NCBI GenBank assembly: GCA_948760655.1
Contig: CAQBKK010000023.1
Coordinates: 1 to 16,877 of the forward strand
Direction of reading: 5' to 3'
From: an uncultured Bacilli bacterium
Lineage (GTDB): Bacteria; Bacillota_I; Bacilli_A; RF39; UBA660
DNA length: 16,877 bases
Shown piece by piece: positions 5,333 through 16,877 of the stretch. Position numbers and translations under genes: made by a program. Position 1 is the first letter of the stretch. Each line of letters opens with the position of its first letter. The notes under the pieces were generated by a model, which was given only the letters and a program-made list of their open reading frames with translations, was not told the origin of the DNA and ran no database searches.

Positions 5333-5959
5333 TTAATAAATATTTTTTGTGTATTTATATGTGACATTTTGTATTGGGCCTTGTTGGTTTTCTTTTTCTA
5401 ATTTTAAAACACGTAATAAAGTTTCAGCACTTTCTTTCATATCCATATTTATTGCTTCACATTCTATCATTTTATTATGATTATTTAATGTAATTTCTAA
5501 ATATTTGTCTTCTTTTTCATCCTCTTCTGAAGAAGATAACGTAATATCTCCTTTTTCTAAAAACCAAAAATAGTCTTTCCAAATCATCTCTAATGACCAT
5601 AAAAAGGATTCTTGATACGAAACTTTTTTATTGTTTGGAATTTCACTGGGATAAATTGCATTAGTAATGGTTCCTAGTATTTGCTCTATATAAGCAAAGG
5701 GATTCCAAATTTCTGGATGTTTTATTTCTGTATTGGTTAATTCACAATATATTTCACCCATGCAAACTAAAGCCATATTATATAGTTCTATTCGTTTCTT
5801 GTTGTAAGGAAAACTTGCATATATATCAGTATATCTTGTTAATTTCTCTAATTGATAAAAATCCAAATTCACTTCTATAAAACTTTCACCTAATTTATTA
5901 AACTCTTTTCTAAAAATCATTTGAAAATAATTCAAATGTACTTTTTCTTTTGCTTCCAT
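5333..5959 (-). CDS. Hypothetical 208-residue protein
   Basis: This soluble, largely helical protein is rich in Trp and Tyr (for example WNPFAYIEQILG around residue 88 and the WSLEMIWKDYFWFLEKG region around 125-141). A very acidic loop follows (SSSEEDEKEDK). I recognise no domain. I prefer the ATG at 5959, which has a GAAAGAGAG site upstream; a GTG three codons earlier is possible but less well placed. A strong promoter (TTGCTT, 17 bp, TATAAT) precedes it, so it leads a two-gene transcript with the 105-residue gene, closed by the repeat terminator. The function is unknown. Confidence 0.7.
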   Translation of the reverse strand: MEAKEKVHLNYFQMIFRKEFNKLGESFIEVNLDFYQLEKLTRYTDIYASFPYNKKRIELYNMALVCMGEIYCELTNTEIKHPEIWNPFAYIEQILGTITNAIYPSEIPNNKKVSYQESFLWSLEMIWKDYFWFLEKGDITLSSSEEDEKEDKYLEITLNNHNKMIECEAINMDMKESAETLLRVLKLEKENQQGPIQNVTYKYTKNIY

Positions 5960-5987
5960 TTCACACACTCTCTTTCAAATTTGCTTT

Positions 5988-9960: not shown

Positions 9961-12138
9961 TTATGAAAATTTCATCTTACTTAAAATACGCTCCAAGGTA
10001 TAAATTTCGTCTTCTATAGGATTTTCGTTTTCCACTCTAGAGCTTTCAGACATTGGCCTTCCGTAACGATTCCCACCTGGTACAATTTTTATATTATAAA
10101 GATCCGTTCCACTCCATCTAAATTCTAAAAAAGATTGGCAGATACCTTCGTCTCCTAAGTAAAACATTAAAGTGGTGGCAAGTTCAGCTAATTCATATCT
10201 TGTATCTAAACGCCTTTGCTGTACTAATGTGTAATATATCTTATCTTTATAGGCAGCAAATTGTGATTTTATTGACACCTGATTATAAGGATTGGTTCCA
10301 TGTTTTCTTACATAGACAGGATTAGTAGTACGATTGTATACTACATTTCCTACCCAATAGTAATCTTCAAAACGAAAATCTCCTTCTCCACCAACTACTG
10401 CAAACACTTCAACTAACTCTTCCATCGAATTAACAATACGATTATTTACAATCTTCTCTTGCATTTCATCTAGTACTTTATTTACTAAATATTTCATTCT
10501 TTGTTGTTTTTCGGTTACATTTTTTCTTTTCATATAATATGTGTTTAGATATTCTTCAAAATCTGTTTCAAAAAGTTCGAAAATAAAATCAAATTTTTGT
10601 CCTGGAGTATACTCACTAAGCATATTCCATATCGCGTCTAGTTTTACATTGTCATCGTAATCACTTAGAGTAAGTAAATAAGCTGCTTTTTCTTGAATAG
10701 TTGCTACATTAAAATTTGCGTTGTATTCTGTTACGTATTCTAAAAGTTTTTCTTGGCTTATCGTTTCTTGTTTTGAAAGTGTGTTAAAAATCACTTTAAA
10801 AGGAACCATATCTGCATTTATTATAGCTTTTACAGTTTGTTCTTCTGCTGTGCCTTCTAACTTCAATAAGTCATCCATTATCTTTTCAGACGATACATCG
10901 GGTATCAATAAGGAATATACAACTTTTTGTTCTATAGAAAAGTCTGGATTTTTAGTAATAAATGCCAATTTTTCTTCATAGGTAGCTATTTTTGAGCGAG
11001 TTATGTATTCCATTGCTTCGTATTTTTTTAGTCCACACTCAGTTAAAACATAGTGAAATATTTCTTGATTACTTGCTATTCCCGAATTTATAATACAATT
11101 CATTTTGGTATCTCTATTTATCGTTTTCATTCCTAATACGTAATCAAATAGATTGTTAGGACTCGTAATCCCCGAATGCATTATTTCGTTTATTGTTTGG
11201 TTAATGGATAGTTTTGTGTATATTCTAGGTTCTTCTAAACAATAGTCAAATATATTTTGATAACTTGTTAAGCCAGAATGAATAATTTTATTTAGCTTGG
11301 TTTCTAATGACATTCCTTCTTGGTCTAGAATCTTACTAAATTCTTCTCTATAAATATTTTCATAAGAAACTTCTGCTGTCTCTTCTCTGAAAATAGATTT
11401 TTTTATTTCTCTAAAGTAATTTTCAGCAGTATTTAATTTGTCTTCTAAAAACTCTTCTATTTCTTCTATGATGACAGATTCATAGGTAGTTGTTCTTTCT
11501 TCTATATTCTTTATTGCCTCTGTTCCACCCATACTTAAAAAGATTTGTATGGCAAAAGTTACAGAAGAAGAAATCAATCCAAATTTTTCAAAAACAGGAT
11601 TGTTCCAAATAGAAGTTTCAAATTCTGCTTTTCTATTGAATTCTTTTATTTGATTTAGTGTTTTAATACGATTTGTTTCTAATTCTTTTGCAATTAATTC
11701 TTCCCCTAGTGCAATGGTATTTAAAAGGTATTGTTCCAAGTCTTGGTATGGCACTATTTCCATTTTTTCAAATTTTAGAAGAAATTCTCTAATTTTTCCT
11801 TCTAAAATATCTGCTACCCAATTATTAATGATATTGCATTCTGGTTTTTGGGGAGTACCATATATTTGTATTGTATTTTCTATTTTCTCTTTTGCAGGAG
11901 AAACGATTCTTTCTGCTTCTTTGATTATTTCTGTTTTGGTTTTCTTATAGGCTTCTTCATCGAAATTTAGGTTATTTTCTTTTTTAGATTTTTTGTCTTT
12001 ATTTAGTTCTACATATTGTTTTGTTAATTTATCTAAAGCTGGCCCATAAATACTTCCAATTACATAAAAAGCATAAATTACAGCAGATACTACTTCTTTT
12101 GCTTTACTTTCCATTACACTATTACTTTGTTTACGCAT
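9961..12138 (-). CDS. Unrecognised 725-residue helical-repeat protein
   Basis: The start is the ATG at 12138, with an AGGGGG site; the reading frame is open further upstream, but that part is occupied by the promoter. There is no clear signal peptide. A weakly hydrophobic helix lies at about 15-31 and another at 188-203, separated by a charged helical region. From about residue 283 the protein has tandem helical repeats with a 30-34-residue period. Their consensus is roughly II-x-SGI-x-S-x3-IF-x-YVL, at about 283, 317, 347, 377, 407 and 437, as in HEAT- or TPR-like solenoids. The C-terminal 140 residues look like a separate mixed domain rich in Tyr and Arg (YYWVGNVVYNRTTNPVYVRK at 593-612; FRWSGTDLYNIKIVPGG near 673-689). 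I recognise no family. It is a single-gene unit with its own promoter and terminator. A scaffold or protein-binding role is an inference from the repeats alone. Confidence 0.8.
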   Translation of the reverse strand: MRKQSNSVMESKAKEVVSAVIYAFYVIGSIYGPALDKLTKQYVELNKDKKSKKENNLNFDEEAYKKTKTEIIKEAERIVSPAKEKIENTIQIYGTPQKPECNIINNWVADILEGKIREFLLKFEKMEIVPYQDLEQYLLNTIALGEELIAKELETNRIKTLNQIKEFNRKAEFETSIWNNPVFEKFGLISSSVTFAIQIFLSMGGTEAIKNIEERTTTYESVIIEEIEEFLEDKLNTAENYFREIKKSIFREETAEVSYENIYREEFSKILDQEGMSLETKLNKIIHSGLTSYQNIFDYCLEEPRIYTKLSINQTINEIMHSGITSPNNLFDYVLGMKTINRDTKMNCIINSGIASNQEIFHYVLTECGLKKYEAMEYITRSKIATYEEKLAFITKNPDFSIEQKVVYSLLIPDVSSEKIMDDLLKLEGTAEEQTVKAIINADMVPFKVIFNTLSKQETISQEKLLEYVTEYNANFNVATIQEKAAYLLTLSDYDDNVKLDAIWNMLSEYTPGQKFDFIFELFETDFEEYLNTYYMKRKNVTEKQQRMKYLVNKVLDEMQEKIVNNRIVNSMEELVEVFAVVGGEGDFRFEDYYWVGNVVYNRTTNPVYVRKHGTNPYNQVSIKSQFAAYKDKIYYTLVQQRRLDTRYELAELATTLMFYLGDEGICQSFLEFRWSGTDLYNIKIVPGGNRYGRPMSESSRVENENPIEDEIYTLERILSKMKFS

Positions 12139-12175
12139 AGAGTTTTCCCCCTTCTTTAAAAAAAACGCCTTTGCC

Positions 12176-12204
12176 ATTGTACAATAATTTAAAAGAAAAG
12201 TCAA
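12176..12204 (-). promoter_or_regulatory. Strong sigma-A promoter for the 725-residue gene
   Basis: Minus strand -35 TTGACT (12199-12204), 17-base spacer, -10 TACAAT (12176-12181); 10 of 12 consensus positions match. Transcription would start near 12169, leaving about 30 bases before the ATG at 12138. Confidence 0.8.
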
Positions 12205-12227: not shown

Positions 12228-12953
12228 TTATTTTTGTAGGTGTTTCAACCCTTTTTTGGCTTGAGAATATTCGTCATGGTGTTTTATTTTATAAAGTTTT
12301 CCATCTTTTTTAAAATTAGATCCAGTTTGGTGAAAATCAAAACGAACATTATAATTGTCACAAGTTTCTTTGATATGTTTCACCCAAGCAAAATCACAGA
12401 TTCGTGCATTATCGTAAGATTCTCCCCCAACAGAAATCATTTCTATTTTTCCAGTTTTTAAATACTTACTAAAATCTATATCTTCTAAAATTGGGGAGGC
12501 AAAGATATATCGGTGTCTTATTTTGCATTCTAAAAATAAGGGGATACGTTCATCCGTCTTTTCTTGGTTTTCGCAGGTTACTGCAATTGAAACATTTTCG
12601 TATCCATCCTCCCAATCATTTGGGATACAACTTTCAAATCTTTCAATTCTCTTGGTAGGAATTAAAAAAGTTATGTCTTTTCTTTCTTTTATTATTTTCC
12701 ATGCCTCTTTTCTCCAGACATCTGCTTCTTCTAGAAAAAAATCGGAGGTAAAACAGGTTGCGAGTTCTGTACCTTTCGGAATTTTATAGTTCCCTTGTTT
12801 ATCTTTTTTTATCGGCAAATTAAAATTGGTTTTGGATTTTGTTATGCTACTTGCATCTTTCTCTCGTAATTTATCCAAATAGTAAACATAACAGTTTTTA
12901 CATCCTGGACTAATTTTTCGACATCCATGCCATGGGTTCCATTGGTACTTCAT
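12228..12953 (-). CDS. DUF5131 / phage Gp37-Gp68 family protein (PF07505)
   Basis: This 241-residue protein is close to the usual family length. Diagnostic elements are the N-terminal WNPWHGC followed by SPGCKNCY (Cys11, Cys18, Cys21; C-x6-C-x2-C), FTSDFF (about 68-73), LIPTKR (about 96-101), VTCENQEKTDERI near 129-141, SVGGES (about 174-179) and DFHQTGS near the end. Family members resemble radical-SAM-like or iron-sulfur proteins with a Cys cluster and occur often in phages and mobile elements; their reaction is not established. Its ATG overlaps the stop of the metallopeptidase gene (ATGA), so the two are co-translated and probably work together. Ribosome binding upstream is weak, which fits coupling. 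No integrase or phage structural gene adjoins it, so a phage origin is not shown. Confidence 0.85.
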   Translation of the reverse strand: MKYQWNPWHGCRKISPGCKNCYVYYLDKLREKDASSITKSKTNFNLPIKKDKQGNYKIPKGTELATCFTSDFFLEEADVWRKEAWKIIKERKDITFLIPTKRIERFESCIPNDWEDGYENVSIAVTCENQEKTDERIPLFLECKIRHRYIFASPILEDIDFSKYLKTGKIEMISVGGESYDNARICDFAWVKHIKETCDNYNVRFDFHQTGSNFKKDGKLYKIKHHDEYSQAKKGLKHLQK

Positions 12954-13591
12954 AAAACACGTTCTTTCTTTTTTATATATTCTTTAGTTTCTTTATACAA
13001 TCTAGGCGTTTCTTTTTCTTGTAAGGTAAAATTATTTAATAGTTTCCATATATAATTTTTTCCATAGGTTTGATAAACATATAAAAACATGGTATAAAAT
13101 TCTCTATAATCTGTATTTTTTCTTTTTTTCATTTCTTCTAATGTCGCAGTAAAAAAATTTGTTTCTTTGTATTGGCTTGAAAGAAATGTTGCTAGTCCTT
13201 CCCAGAGCCATATATAACTTTTTGTTGTTGTATACCTGAAGTGACAAACATGGACAAATTCATGAAGTAATAGATGAGCAAAGTCTTTGATTGTTGTATT
13301 TTCATAATATTTTATTTTCTTTACTTCTTTTAAAGAAACGACTTCAATTACTGTAGTTTCATTTATTTTTTGAATTGAACCAATTCTATTTTGATTTTCT
13401 ATAGCAAATACGTTTCTATATTTTTCTAAATCCAGCCATAATCTTAGTGTTACTTTGGGAACAAATTTTGTAAATGCAAAAAAGTCTAAAATGGGCTTTA
13501 TTTCATTTTTTAAGATAGCAATTGCTTCTTCTATGTAAGGTAAGTCACAGGTATTATATTCGATTATTATTTCTTCTAGTTCTTTTTTCAT
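12950..13591 (-). CDS. Small HEXXH zinc metallopeptidase-like protein
   Basis: The protein has 213 residues and no signal peptide. LLLHEFVHVCH gives the HEXXH zinc site (His110, Glu111, His114), and WEGLATFLSS supplies the third ligand Glu131, 17 residues after His114, as in gluzincins of the MA clan. This resembles the compact peptidase-MA-like domains (PF13485 type). The remaining parts are an N-terminal helical/strand region and a basic helical tail (EYIKKKERVL). It should be cytoplasmic. The start ATG has AAAGGATT upstream and an extended -10 (TGTTATAAT) 23 bases further up. It is the first gene of a two-gene unit with the DUF5131 gene. The substrate is unknown. Confidence 0.75.
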   Translation of the reverse strand: MKKELEEIIIEYNTCDLPYIEEAIAILKNEIKPILDFFAFTKFVPKVTLRLWLDLEKYRNVFAIENQNRIGSIQKINETTVIEVVSLKEVKKIKYYENTTIKDFAHLLLHEFVHVCHFRYTTTKSYIWLWEGLATFLSSQYKETNFFTATLEEMKKRKNTDYREFYTMFLYVYQTYGKNYIWKLLNNFTLQEKETPRLYKETKEYIKKKERVL

Positions 13592-14480: not shown

Positions 14481-14509
14481 AAAAACTTGCTTTTTACGGC
14501 AAGTTTTTT
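14480..14509 (+). terminator. Terminator of the ZIP transporter gene
   Basis: The 11-bp stem AAAAAACTTGC/GCAAGTTTTTT has an 8-base loop, with its T-tract forming the 3' arm. It begins at the last base of the ZIP stop codon. Confidence 0.85.
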
Positions 14510-14519
14510 ATTTAGCCTA

Positions 14520-14989
14520 TTAAAAACCTAGATTGACCCCCTCTATCAAATAGATAAAAAGATAAAATACTTCGTCCTGACTTATTACTACAAAACACTT
14601 ATCACTAGAAACATTTTTTAGCAAATATCCTATTATTCTATCCACTTAATTATTTGCACTAACTAACTCAGACTTTAATCTAAAAATTACATATTGTCAA
14701 TTATCAATTCCAGAATCAAATGCACTTAATAAAAATTTATCTGATTCATATACATTGCTTTCACTCATTAAATCTATTTGACTTTCCTACCGTCTCCATT
14801 CTCTTGAAGAACCTTTCGCACCAGCACATACATATTATTTGCTTCTAAATTCACAACAAGAAAATATAGTTTGATAAAAATGCATATGATTATCAAAAGC
14901 TGGTTTTACATACTCATTTAATACTTGAGATAAAATTGTTTGCTTCTTTTACTATTATAATATTCTTCTGTTGTTAAGGTATCATTCAT
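14520..14989 (-). pseudogene. Decayed gene remnant (surface or virion-like protein)
   Basis: No intact frame is present, but coherent protein-like sequence can be read on the minus strand. An ATG at 14989 opens MNDTLTTEEYYNSKRSKQ. A frameshift then leads into TILSQVLNEYVKPAFDNHMH, and the frame continues past stops of all three kinds through YVCAGAKGSSREW, LMSESNVYESDKFLLSAFDS, VIFRLKSELVSANN and CFVVISQDE to a terminal GVNLGF near 14523. At least four in-frame stops and one frameshift show real decay rather than recoding. The layout (a start resembling TILN(E/Q)xVxPAxxN and an end resembling GVRPxF) reminds me of a family of repeat-rich structural or surface proteins of gut Bacillota. That family assignment is from memory and uncertain. 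Confidence 0.5.
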
Positions 14990-15092
14990 TTATAACATAA
15001 AATAATTATTTTTCCCAAAAAACTTAGCAACAAAATAGAGTTTACTAGAAAATTTTAAAAGTTAAACAAAAAAAGAATGACAATAGTCAATC

Positions 15093-15419
15093 TTAAAATA
15101 ATAATTTATTTTTTCTTAATTCAAAATCCAAAGATTTTTTACTAGTTGTATCATTAATTGCTTTATTAACAGAAACACCTGCTTTTAATACAACAATAGG
15201 ACGAATTCCAAAACTAGTTGTACTATTATGCCAACCCTTTCATTTTTATAAACTTCACCAAATCCATATAATAACTCACCAGTTACACTTACATTCCGAC
15301 CATAACAATATAACCACCCATAATGACAACGTAAATATGCACATGAGACTAACCAATACTCAACTGGAGTTTCACTTTAAAACCTCTTGTCTACCATCCC
15401 CAAACTTGATTTTAATAAA
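15093..15419 (-). pseudogene. Decayed C-terminal fragment of a DUF6273-like surface protein
   Basis: Minus-strand translation gives IKFGDGRQEVLK, a frameshift, then SETPVEYWLVSCAYLRCHYG and YCYGRNVSVTGELLYGFGEV. A second frameshift leads to GHNSTTSFGIRPIVVLKAGV, then SVNKAINDTTSKKSLDFEL, stopping at 15093. The order YWL(A/V)S ... FG(I/V)RP(I/V)V(V/S)LK is the C-terminal signature of large DUF6273-type secreted or cell-surface proteins common in gut Bacillota. The N-terminal part is missing and the frame is broken twice, so this is a remnant. Confidence 0.6.
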
Positions 15420-15445
15420 AAAATTACTTTATATAATCATAATTT

Positions 15446-15499
15446 GAATAACATTAAAAAATTAGTATTCAATGTTATTCCTTCTAAATACTAATTTTT
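15446..15499. repeat. Interlocked perfect inverted repeats (10 bp and 13 bp)
   Basis: GAATAACATT (15446-15455) pairs with AATGTTATTC (15471-15480). AAAAATTAGTATT (15457-15469) pairs with AATACTAATTTTT (15487-15499). The arms alternate A-B-A'-B', so the two hairpins cannot form fully at the same time. The 13-bp hairpin ends in a T-tract on both strands and could terminate transcription in either direction; the 10-bp one is placed as a competing fold. Confidence 0.6.
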
Positions 15500-15544
15500 A
15501 TATGGTTGCCCTAACATTATATTTAACATTTAAAAAAAGCTTTC

Positions 15545-15560
15545 GTCGAACCATGTCGAA
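15545..15560 (+). promoter_or_regulatory. Tandem GTCGAA boxes upstream of the small-RNA promoter
   Basis: GTCGAA occurs at 15545-15550 and again at 15555-15560, exactly 10 bp apart, so both face the same side of the helix. They sit immediately upstream of the -35 at 15565. The second box is preceded by T and matches the core TGTCGAA of Spo0A boxes. Tandem direct repeats at this distance are typical of response-regulator activator sites. No regulator gene is nearby, so the binding protein is inferred only. Confidence 0.4.
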
Positions 15561-15564
15561 TCGC

Positions 15565-15592
15565 TTGCAAAAGAATAAAAACACATTATAAT
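15565..15592 (+). promoter_or_regulatory. Plus-strand promoter for the predicted small RNA
   Basis: -35 TTGCAA (15565-15570), 16-base spacer, perfect -10 TATAAT (15587-15592). Transcription would begin at about 15599-15601, exactly at the first base of the long stem that opens the predicted RNA. No protein gene follows on this strand. Confidence 0.65.
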
Positions 15593-15599
15593 ACGAACT

Positions 15600-15738
15600 C
15601 GTGTTACTTAGTTCACCAACAAACCAAATTCAGGGGGTTTTTGATTCAACTAATTTTAAAATAAAACTAAGTAACACAATCTACATTTTTAAAGTAAAAG
15701 AACTATACATTCCTCCCCGTACAGTTCTTTTATTTTTT
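15600..15738 (+). ncRNA. Predicted structured small RNA, about 139 nt
   Basis: The predicted transcript begins with GTGTTACTTAGTT (15601-15613), which pairs perfectly with AACTAAGTAACAC (15665-15677). This 13-bp stem closes a 77-nt domain that holds a smaller AAACC/GGTTT hairpin. A short AT-rich linker leads to a terminator (15695-15738) whose loop is ATTCCTCCCC. A promoter is correctly positioned upstream and there is a clear 3' end. No plausible ORF with a ribosome site lies inside. C-rich loops of this kind pair with Shine-Dalgarno sites in several regulatory RNAs of Bacillota, for example the staphylococcal Rsa RNAs. It does not look like tmRNA, 6S, SRP RNA, RNase P RNA or a riboswitch known to me. 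The 3' end converges on sufU. Confidence 0.55.
15695..15738 (+). terminator. Terminator of the small RNA, probably shared with sufU on the other strand
   Basis: A 10-bp stem, TAAAAGAACT/AGTTCTTTTA, has one A-C mismatch and three further pairs above it, a 10-base C-rich loop, and then TTTTTT (15733-15738). On the minus strand the same hairpin starts at the sufU stop codon and is followed by a broken T-tract, so it may work in both directions. Confidence 0.75.
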
Positions 15739-16155
15739 ATAAATATCCAATGCTTTTCTTACACCTTTATAAGGAAGCAAAGCACAAGTCTTTCTATTTC
15801 CTTGCTTATAAATCGTATTATAAACAATTCCCTCTCCTAACACTTCTTCATTATATTCACACTCGTTTACCATAGATTCAAAATGAGAAATATAAGATTC
15901 TGCCTCTTCTATCGTTTTTCCAAGCAAATTTATAATCATAATAGAAGTCGAAGAAGTAGAAATAGCACACGCTTCTCCTTGAAACTTAATATCCTTAATA
16001 ACACCATCTTCTACTAAAAGATACAAATCTATGTTATCAATGCAAGATTCATTATTGGTATTTACTTTTATATAACGTTCATCTTGAACGCTCTCTTTAT
16101 TTTTAGGATTTTGATAATGATCTAAAATAATAGCACGTCTTAAATTTTCATCCAT
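15730..16155 (-). CDS. sufU: SufU, iron-sulfur assembly protein (IscU-fold, zinc-dependent sulfurtransferase)
   Basis: The 141-residue protein is the usual SufU length. The conserved zinc and sulfur-acceptor residues are in place: Cys38 and Asp40 in ESCIDN, Cys63 in GEACAISTSST and Cys124 in RKTCALLPYKG. The insert between the second and third Cys that separates SufU from IscU is present (about 80-112). SufU accepts persulfide from the cysteine desulfurase SufS and passes it to the SufBCD scaffold in the cytoplasm. The first motif reads SCID instead of the commoner TCGD. AAGGAG precedes the ATG, which overlaps the sufS stop codon (TAATG). No sufB follows; the next element downstream is the convergent small RNA, so sufBCD must lie outside the window. 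Confidence 0.93.
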   Translation of the reverse strand: MDENLRRAIILDHYQNPKNKESVQDERYIKVNTNNESCIDNIDLYLLVEDGVIKDIKFQGEACAISTSSTSIMIINLLGKTIEEAESYISHFESMVNECEYNEEVLGEGIVYNTIYKQGNRKTCALLPYKGVRKALDIYKK

Positions 16156-16877
16156 TATAACATCTCCTTCAAAATTTTTTCTTTATCACTTAAAAGTTCC
16201 ACTAATGCATCAATTTCTTCAAATGTATTATAAAAATACAAACTAACACGAATCGTATTATTAACTCCTACTTCTTTTTTTAAAATTTTTGCACAATGAT
16301 TCCCTGCTCTCACACAAATATTATATTTATTTAAGTAGTACGCTACATCTTGACTAAAAATATCTGCAACATTAAAAGAAACTATACCACTATCACTCTC
16401 AATATTAATAATATCTAAATGAGGTATTAAAATCAATTTATCAATCAAATACTGCCGCAAAGTTTTTTCATAATCTGCAATTTGTTCCATTCTGGTACGA
16501 TTTAAATAACGAATAGCTTCTCCAAAAGCAATAACTCCTGCAATATTCGGTGTCCCTGGCTCTAATCTTGTAGGCAAACCTTTTAAAAATACGGAAGATT
16601 CATTATCAAAAGATTCATTCATTCCTCCCCCTAAAATAAGTGGTTCGACATTTTCTAAAAGTTCTTTTTTTCCATACAAGACACCAACACCTGTAGGTCC
16701 ACACATCTTATGAGCAGAAAAAGACATAAAATCAATATCTAAATCTTGGACATCTGTTTTTATATGACCAATACTTTGTGCGGCATCTAAAACAACAAAA
16801 ATATTATGTTGATGAGCAAATTATGTAATTTCCTTGATAGGACGAATATCTCCAATAACATTAGTAATATAAGCAAG
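16155..16877 (-). pseudogene. sufS: SufS cysteine desulfurase, 3' part, interrupted by an in-frame TAA
   Basis: The frame is continuous with SufS from the window edge. The first part reads AYITNVIGDIRPIKEIT, then TAA (16821-16823), then FAHQHNIFVVLDAAQSIGH with the cofactor-binding Asp, and SFSAHKMCGPTGVGVLYG with the PLP Lys. The catalytic loop RAGNHCAK carries the active-site Cys, and the normal C-terminus follows. Apart from the nonsense codon, most likely a changed GAA Glu codon, the protein looks fully functional. The longest remaining ATG-started frame (16155-16727) lacks the PLP Asp and should be inactive alone. Either the gene is a very recent pseudogene or the base is a sequencing or assembly error; the good conservation of sufU favours error or very recent loss. 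The N-terminal half is beyond the right edge. The stop overlaps the sufU start. Confidence 0.85.

What the first reader, a model, noticed from the sequence alone, without database searches (positions are those of the whole stretch)
15600..15738. Candidate new small regulatory RNA with a C-rich anti-Shine-Dalgarno loop
Promoter (TTGCAA-16-TATAAT), start point, a perfect 13-bp stem closing a 77-nt domain, and a terminator line up end to end with no coding potential. The terminator loop ATTCCTCCCC is the type of C-rich single-stranded seed used by sRNAs that block translation. I recognise no known RNA family. It converges on the sufSU genes, so its 3' end overlaps the end of the sufU gene in antisense.
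Basis: partly seen in the sequence, partly recalled or inferred. Interest (0 to 1): 0.75.

Follow-up and report, generated by a model that had tools for sequence, protein, structure and literature searches.

The report
Possible Spo0A-controlled RNA beside sufSU
A stretch read as a new small regulatory RNA looks like the shared end-signal of two iron-sulfur genes plus an unproven short transcript, lying next to what appears to be a real binding site for a sporulation master regulator.

Summary
The anatomy is there: TTGCAA-16-TATAAT, a perfect 13-bp stem (15601-15613/15665-15677), a terminator hairpin with loop ATTCCTCCCC, and a 9-nt antisense overlap with sufU. The parts carry unequal weight. 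Promoter-like sites are no commoner than chance (13 found, 12.8 expected). The stem is modest: one or more such stems in 1.2% of regional and 11% of whole-window shuffles. The terminator is strong, but 34 of 79 relatives have a terminator hairpin at the sufU stop (91 of 800 random positions), and none of the 34 has CCTCC in its antisense loop. So it is most simply the sufSU terminator, usable in both directions. No homologue was found, so covariation is untestable; the closest genome lacks this junction.

One new fact favours an RNA: a perfect tandem GTCGAA-N4-GTCGAA (15545-15560) ends 4 bp before the -35 and looks like paired Spo0A boxes. The motif is real in this clade: 115 of 291 genomes have it, against 7 reversed-control matches. 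With a 22-bp spacer it precedes spo0A itself. Here it could serve either strand. Verdict: plausible, lineage-specific, unproven; the anti-Shine-Dalgarno mechanism is unsupported.

The parts
15545..15560 (+). Perfect tandem GTCGAA-N4-GTCGAA, read as two Spo0A (0A) boxes 10 bp apart (first box CGTCGAA, second TGTCGAA)
   Evidence: only match in the window with up to 2 mismatches. Clade support: 115 of 291 genomes, reversed control 7 matches. Core 0A box TGTCGAA: passages of PMC3485338.
15565..15592 (+). Candidate sigma-A-type promoter TTGCAA-16-TATAAT, 4 bp downstream of the box pair
   Evidence: such sites are at chance frequency in this region (13 vs 12.8).
15516..15550 (-). Alternative minus-strand promoter: TTCGAC (15550-15545), 23-nt spacer, TATAAT (15521-15516)
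   Evidence: The clade's established spacer is 22 (14 of 17 distinct sites) or 21 (2 of 17); none has 23.
15601..15677 (+). 77-nt domain closed by a perfect 13-bp stem (arms 15601-15613 and 15665-15677)
   Evidence: fold z -3.3; 1.2% of regional shuffles have such a stem. No homologue to test it.
15691..15736 (.). Hairpin with T-rich tails on both strands: terminator of sufSU (-) and of any + transcript; + strand loop ATTCCTCCCC
   Evidence: found by the same scan on the sufU strand; 34 of 79 relatives have a terminator hairpin there, 91 of 800 random positions.
15730..16155 (-). sufU (Fe-S cluster scaffold-type protein, NifU_N domain), convergent neighbour
   Evidence: ORF; PF01592 E 1.2e-18.
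16155..16877 (-). sufS (class V aminotransferase), runs off the window; in-frame TAA at 16821-16823
   Evidence: PF00266 E 1.3e-57 for the open part; translation with the stop.
15096..15352 (-). Broken remnant of the end of a protein gene, in two overlapping frames
   Evidence: family not identified.

Best explanation
A short, lineage-specific non-coding transcript of about 130-140 nt, started at a promoter that carries paired Spo0A boxes and ended at the bidirectional terminator hairpin that belongs to the convergent sufSU operon. Shown by sequence: the box pair, the promoter match, the stem and the hairpin. Supported by relatives: that the box pair is a real regulatory motif in this clade and that a terminator at the sufU stop is common there. 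Inferred: that the boxes act on the + strand, that the RNA is made, and that it is tied to the starvation/sporulation switch. Its likeliest effect, if any, is local (convergent transcription and 3'-end overlap with sufSU) and not base-pairing to many mRNAs.
For: Perfect tandem GTCGAA-N4-GTCGAA 4 bp upstream of the -35, placing it at about -55 to -39 from the presumed start. The motif occurs in 115 of 291 genomes of the clade (about 230 matches by my addition of the table) against 7 matches of the reversed control. Spo0A (PF08769) is encoded in 20 of 21 close genomes. On the opposite strand of the motif, with a 21-22 bp spacer to TATAMT, it precedes Spo0A, AgrB, a sensor kinase, a cold-shock protein and an HTH regulator. 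In the + orientation, 11 of 17 distinct places (after collapsing six near-identical copies of one genome) have TATAAT 25-32 bp from the pair, window 26 (P 0.003, chosen after seeing the data). Domain z -3.3, terminator z -8.72. Neither strand beside the boxes holds a convincing gene.
Against: No transcript data. Promoter hexamers at chance level. The clade's proven architecture of this motif points to the minus strand, where a TATAAT lies at 23 bp. The total of 22 + orientation matches is not far above the roughly 14 that I would expect by chance from about 230 box pairs. No homologue in 18 genomes by blastn or in 305 genomes by covariance model. Spo0A itself was not shown in the window's own genome, which is not held.
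Confidence: 0.4

Rival explanations
1. No separate RNA. The hairpin is simply the sufSU terminator, the 13-bp stem and the promoter hexamers are chance in an A+T-rich, decaying junction, and the Spo0A boxes belong to a minus-strand promoter (TTCGAC-23-TATAAT) whose gene has been lost.
For: Terminator hairpins at the sufU stop in 34 of 79 relatives, 91 of 800 random places. Promoter sites at chance level. 11% of whole-window shuffles hold a 13-bp stem. The junction is absent from the closest genome, where about 18 kb lie between sufU and the ZIP gene. Gene remnant in two frames on the minus strand at 15096-15352. Minus orientation is the clade's proven one.
Against: Spacer 23 is seen in none of the 17 distinct clade sites. 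The + strand stem, promoter and boxes line up closely. The stem is rare in regional shuffles (1.2%).
Confidence: 0.42
2. One reading: a trans-acting small RNA whose terminator loop CCUCCCC blocks Shine-Dalgarno sites.
For: C-rich (UCCC) motifs in loops, the terminator loop included, mediate target binding of Listeria LhrC (passages of PMC4132741). The loop matches sufS mRNA perfectly over 11 nt, duplex -22.8 kcal/mol.
Against: The loop is the reverse complement of a terminator used by sufSU; 0 of 34 relatives' hairpins there have CCTCC in that loop. The sufS match lies in codons of a GGGMN motif, deep in the gene; exact GGGGAGGAATG is in 0 of the 17 loci (of 80 searched) where my pattern found the motif, GGAGG in 7 of 17. 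The loop can be masked by the RNA's own AGGGGG (-9.0 kcal/mol). No homologues.
Confidence: 0.1
3. A shortened relic of a structured small-peptide (type I toxin-like) unit of the kind present in several copies in genome G116: box pair, 31-bp spacer, TATAAT, then an RNA whose 5' end pairs with its far 3' end around a small ORF.
For: Same order (boxes, TATAAT, stem at the very 5' end) and a shared AGGGGGTTTT.
Against: No ORF in the window's RNA; the 10-mer also occurs once in an unrelated locus (L028); shared 10-mers are expected by chance in comparisons of this size. The G116 units match no Rfam family and were not shown to be toxins.
Confidence: 0.05

Closest known systems
Spo0A-box promoters (0A box TGTCGAA; B. 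subtilis/C. difficile Spo0A regulon)
   Same: Tandem core boxes 10 bp apart beside a promoter; the clade encodes Spo0A and has the box pair in front of spo0A itself.
   Different: Here no protein gene follows on either strand; first box has C for T at its first position; spacers (26 on +, 23 on -) are not the clade's usual 22.
C-rich-loop small RNAs of low-GC bacteria (LhrC, RsaE/RoxS, FsrA, IsrR)
   Same: C-rich loop on an intrinsic terminator, size, no ORF.
   Different: No homologue, no conserved seed, the loop belongs to a terminator shared with sufSU, no target at a ribosome-binding site shown.
Bidirectional intrinsic terminators between convergent genes
   Same: A/T-flanked hairpin spanning the sufU stop codon, T-rich tails on both strands; hairpin at the same place in 34 of 79 relatives.
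   Different: The opposing unit here would be non-coding.

Membership tests
Rfam RNA families (4227 models) | Score at or above a family's gathering cut-off | tested here: not met
   0 matches in the window; best weak hits at E up to 10 are far below cut-off.
Spo0A-regulated promoter | 0A boxes near TGTCGAA, in tandem | tested here: met
   Perfect GTCGAA-N4-GTCGAA at 15545-15560; full 7-mer in one of two boxes.
Spo0A-regulated promoter | Clade encodes Spo0A and uses the motif | tested here: met
   20 of 21 close genomes encode Spo0A_C; 115 of 291 genomes have the pair, reversed control 7 matches. Not testable for the window's own genome.
Spo0A-regulated promoter | Clade spacer of 21-22 bp from box to -10 | tested here: not met
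   Window: 23 on the minus strand; 16 of 17 distinct clade sites have 21-22.
Spo0A-regulated promoter | Spo0A binds and controls it | not testable with these tools
   Needs binding or expression data.
Trans-acting C-rich-loop sRNA | Stand-alone transcript | not testable with these tools
   No RNA data held.
Trans-acting C-rich-loop sRNA | Seed conserved in relatives | tested here: not met
   No homologue; 0 of 34 hairpins at this place have CCTCC in the loop.
Structured RNA with a 13-bp stem | Compensatory changes in homologues | tested here: inconclusive
   No homologue to align.
sufSU intrinsic terminator | Hairpin plus T-run at the sufU stop in relatives | tested here: met
   34 of 79 relatives, 91 of 800 random positions; window hit by the same scan. 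45 of 79 relatives fail the scan.

The most novel reading that the evidence does not exclude
A Spo0A-controlled small RNA that converges on sufSU and, through its 3' overlap and its 11-nt perfect complementarity to sufS mRNA, lowers Fe-S cluster assembly when cells of this uncultured gut Bacilli clade enter the starvation/sporulation programme.
Probability: 0.1. Interest if true: 0.6.

Novelty: new member of a known kind. Interest (0 to 1): 0.3.

Why it matters
If the transcript exists it would be a lineage-specific small RNA wired to Spo0A in an uncultured, small-genome Bacilli clade, next to the Fe-S assembly genes. More solid is the by-product: a clade-wide promoter architecture, TTCGAC-N4-TTCGAC-N22-TATAAT, in front of spo0A, agrB, sensor kinase and regulator genes, which lets the Spo0A regulon of these uncultured bacteria be read from sequence. 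As a small-RNA claim alone the finding is ordinary until RNA data exist.

Tried and rejected
Known RNA families: Rfam at gathering and at E up to 10, nothing. tRNA/tmRNA: none. Phage and plasmid copies: only short A+T-rich matches with E 0.2-0.7, none covering 80% of the query. An exact 13-bp-stem pattern in viral contigs: 0; SufU relatives in viral contigs: none.

Homologues: blastn in 18 genomes gave only short matches (best 20 nt, E 8.4e-4). In a simulation with substitutions only, copies 25% diverged were found in 44-50 of 50 and 35% diverged in 12-34 of 50 (not the same program settings). A single-sequence covariance model found nothing convincing in 21 genomes (lenient filters) or 291 genomes (stricter filters), 305 different genomes in all: best 24.8 bits against 179.7 for the window itself, below the window's own opposite strand (29.9). 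I looked at alignments or sequence of 25 of the 34 listed hits and judged them by eye.

CtsR operator (GTCAAA-type direct repeats) was my first idea for the box pair; rejected because the GTCGAA form predominates and precedes spo0A. tRNA remnant and LexA box: considered, no match by eye. 6S-like RNA: considered, shape does not fit; no Rfam match.

11-nt match to sufS: kept as a lead, not as evidence.

Full report
What is there. The window is low-GC DNA whose SufU protein is up to 82% identical to database proteins other than a 99% one and 79% or less identical to those in genome records titled uncultured Bacilli, Tenericutes, Bacillota and Erysipelotrichaceae, many from rabbit and ruminant guts (80 loci kept of 270). 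That this is the order RF39 or a close one is my inference; no call names it. The window's own genome is not held. Split up, most of that is the terminator (z -8.72); the stem domain has z -3.3 and its interior none.

Chance. Promoter-like sites in 14800-16877 number 13, with 12.8 expected, so the hexamers are no evidence. A 13-bp perfect inverted repeat with a loop up to 80 nt occurs in 11% of whole-window shuffles and 1.2% of shuffles of the A+T-rich stretch 14481-15730; the window has two, the other at 15457/15487.

The terminator belongs to sufSU. The hairpin 15691-15736 spans the sufU stop codon. Scanning from 30 nt before to 70 nt after the sufU stop in 79 of the 80 relatives (one contig ends too soon) found a terminator hairpin in 34, against 91 of 800 random places; the window is positive in the same scan. 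45 of 79 fail it, so the feature is common, not universal. None of the 34 hairpins has CCTCC in its antisense loop, so the C-rich loop is not a kept feature.

No homologues. blastn in 18 close genomes and a single-sequence covariance model in 21 and 291 genomes, 305 different ones, gave nothing above noise: best 24.8 bits, the window itself 179.7, its own opposite strand 29.9. Rfam, phages, plasmids and viral contigs are negative. A copy diverged by up to about 25% would probably have been seen (simulation); a more diverged one might not. In the relatives whose flank I printed (21 loci) the sequence downstream of sufU varies; several have what I read as the infC leader. In the closest genome, G008 (80% nucleotide identity over sufSU, ZIP protein 88%), about 18 kb lie between sufU and the ZIP gene, against 1.25 kb here. 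The region is thus a recent junction in this lineage, with a broken gene remnant on the minus strand at 15096-15352.

The Spo0A boxes. A perfect GTCGAA-N4-GTCGAA lies at 15545-15560, ending 4 bp before the -35. The core 0A box is TGTCGAA (passages of PMC3485338; the 10-bp tandem spacing is recalled). In 291 genomes of the clade the exact pair is found in 115, about 230 matches by my addition, with 7 matches of the reversed control. 20 of 21 close genomes encode Spo0A. [quoted passage not shown] Read on the other strand and followed by TATAMT, the pair occurs at 17 places in 14 of 291 genomes with no control match; the spacer is 22 in 14, 21 in 2 and 26 in 1 (in which two sites are shown twice). 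Five of the genes behind them were checked by Pfam: Spo0A itself, AgrB, a histidine kinase, a cold-shock protein and an HTH protein. A 22-bp spacer is what I recall for B. subtilis spoIIG; one search was run to find it in print and I opened none of its five papers. This is a real promoter type of the clade.

Which strand here? On the minus strand the window has TATAAT at 23 bp, a spacer seen in none of the 17. On the plus strand it has TATAAT at 26 bp. In the plus orientation 22 matches in 16 of 291 genomes were found, control 0; I would expect roughly 14 by chance, so the total is weak. Their spacers cluster at 25-32 in 11 of 17 distinct places, a window chosen after seeing the data. So the boxes are probably real, but whether they drive the candidate RNA, a lost minus-strand gene, or both is open. 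No convincing gene follows on either strand.

Mechanism. A C-rich loop on a terminator can be a seed, as in Listeria LhrC (passages of PMC4132741). Here the loop is the complement of a sufSU terminator, is not seen in relatives, and could pair with the RNA's own AGGGGG (-9.0 kcal/mol). Its perfect 11-nt match to sufS mRNA (16620-16630; -22.8 kcal/mol) lies far inside the coding sequence in codons for a GGGMN motif; by length alone about 0.2 such matches are expected (my estimate). I therefore give the trans-acting reading 0.1, a Spo0A-linked local transcript 0.4, and no separate RNA 0.42.

Literature. Searches for small RNAs with RF39/Spo0A (none of the 8 listed of 18 papers holds the term RF39) and for 0A boxes with noncoding RNA (none of the 10 listed of 15 holds the term 0A box) did not show this RNA; I saw listings and abstract starts only. 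Small RNAs acting on sporulation are known (for example the listings PMC10267692 and PMC9147052), so the kind is not new.

Noticed in passing
L244-L260 (genomes of the clade); window 15516-15560: Clade-wide promoter architecture TTCGAC-N4-TTCGAC-N22-TATAMT in front of spo0A, agrB, sensor kinase, cold-shock and HTH genes; in close genomes similar pairs precede small HTH genes.
   Followed up: partly
L265, L277, L279, L280 (genome G116): Multi-copy units: Spo0A-box pair, 31 bp, TATAAT, then an RNA whose 5' GAGCGTTAGGA can pair with a far 3' TCCTAACGCTC around a small hydrophobic ORF; reminiscent of type I toxin mRNAs; no Rfam match.
   Followed up: partly
window 16821-16823, minus strand: sufS carries an in-frame TAA stop in this contig: either a disrupted gene or an assembly error.
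   Followed up: no
window 15096-15352, minus strand: Remnant of a protein's C-terminal part split over two frames (ends ...GIRPIVVLKAGVSV...), upstream of the candidate RNA.
   Followed up: partly
window 15454-15504: A second A+T-rich hairpin (18-nt arms, 89% complementary) between the gene remnant and the box pair; it would be the first structure in a minus-strand transcript from the boxes.
   Followed up: no
window 9961-12204, 12950-13591, 204-1088, 5333-5968: Four predicted proteins without a Pfam match, the first 747 aa long.
   Followed up: no
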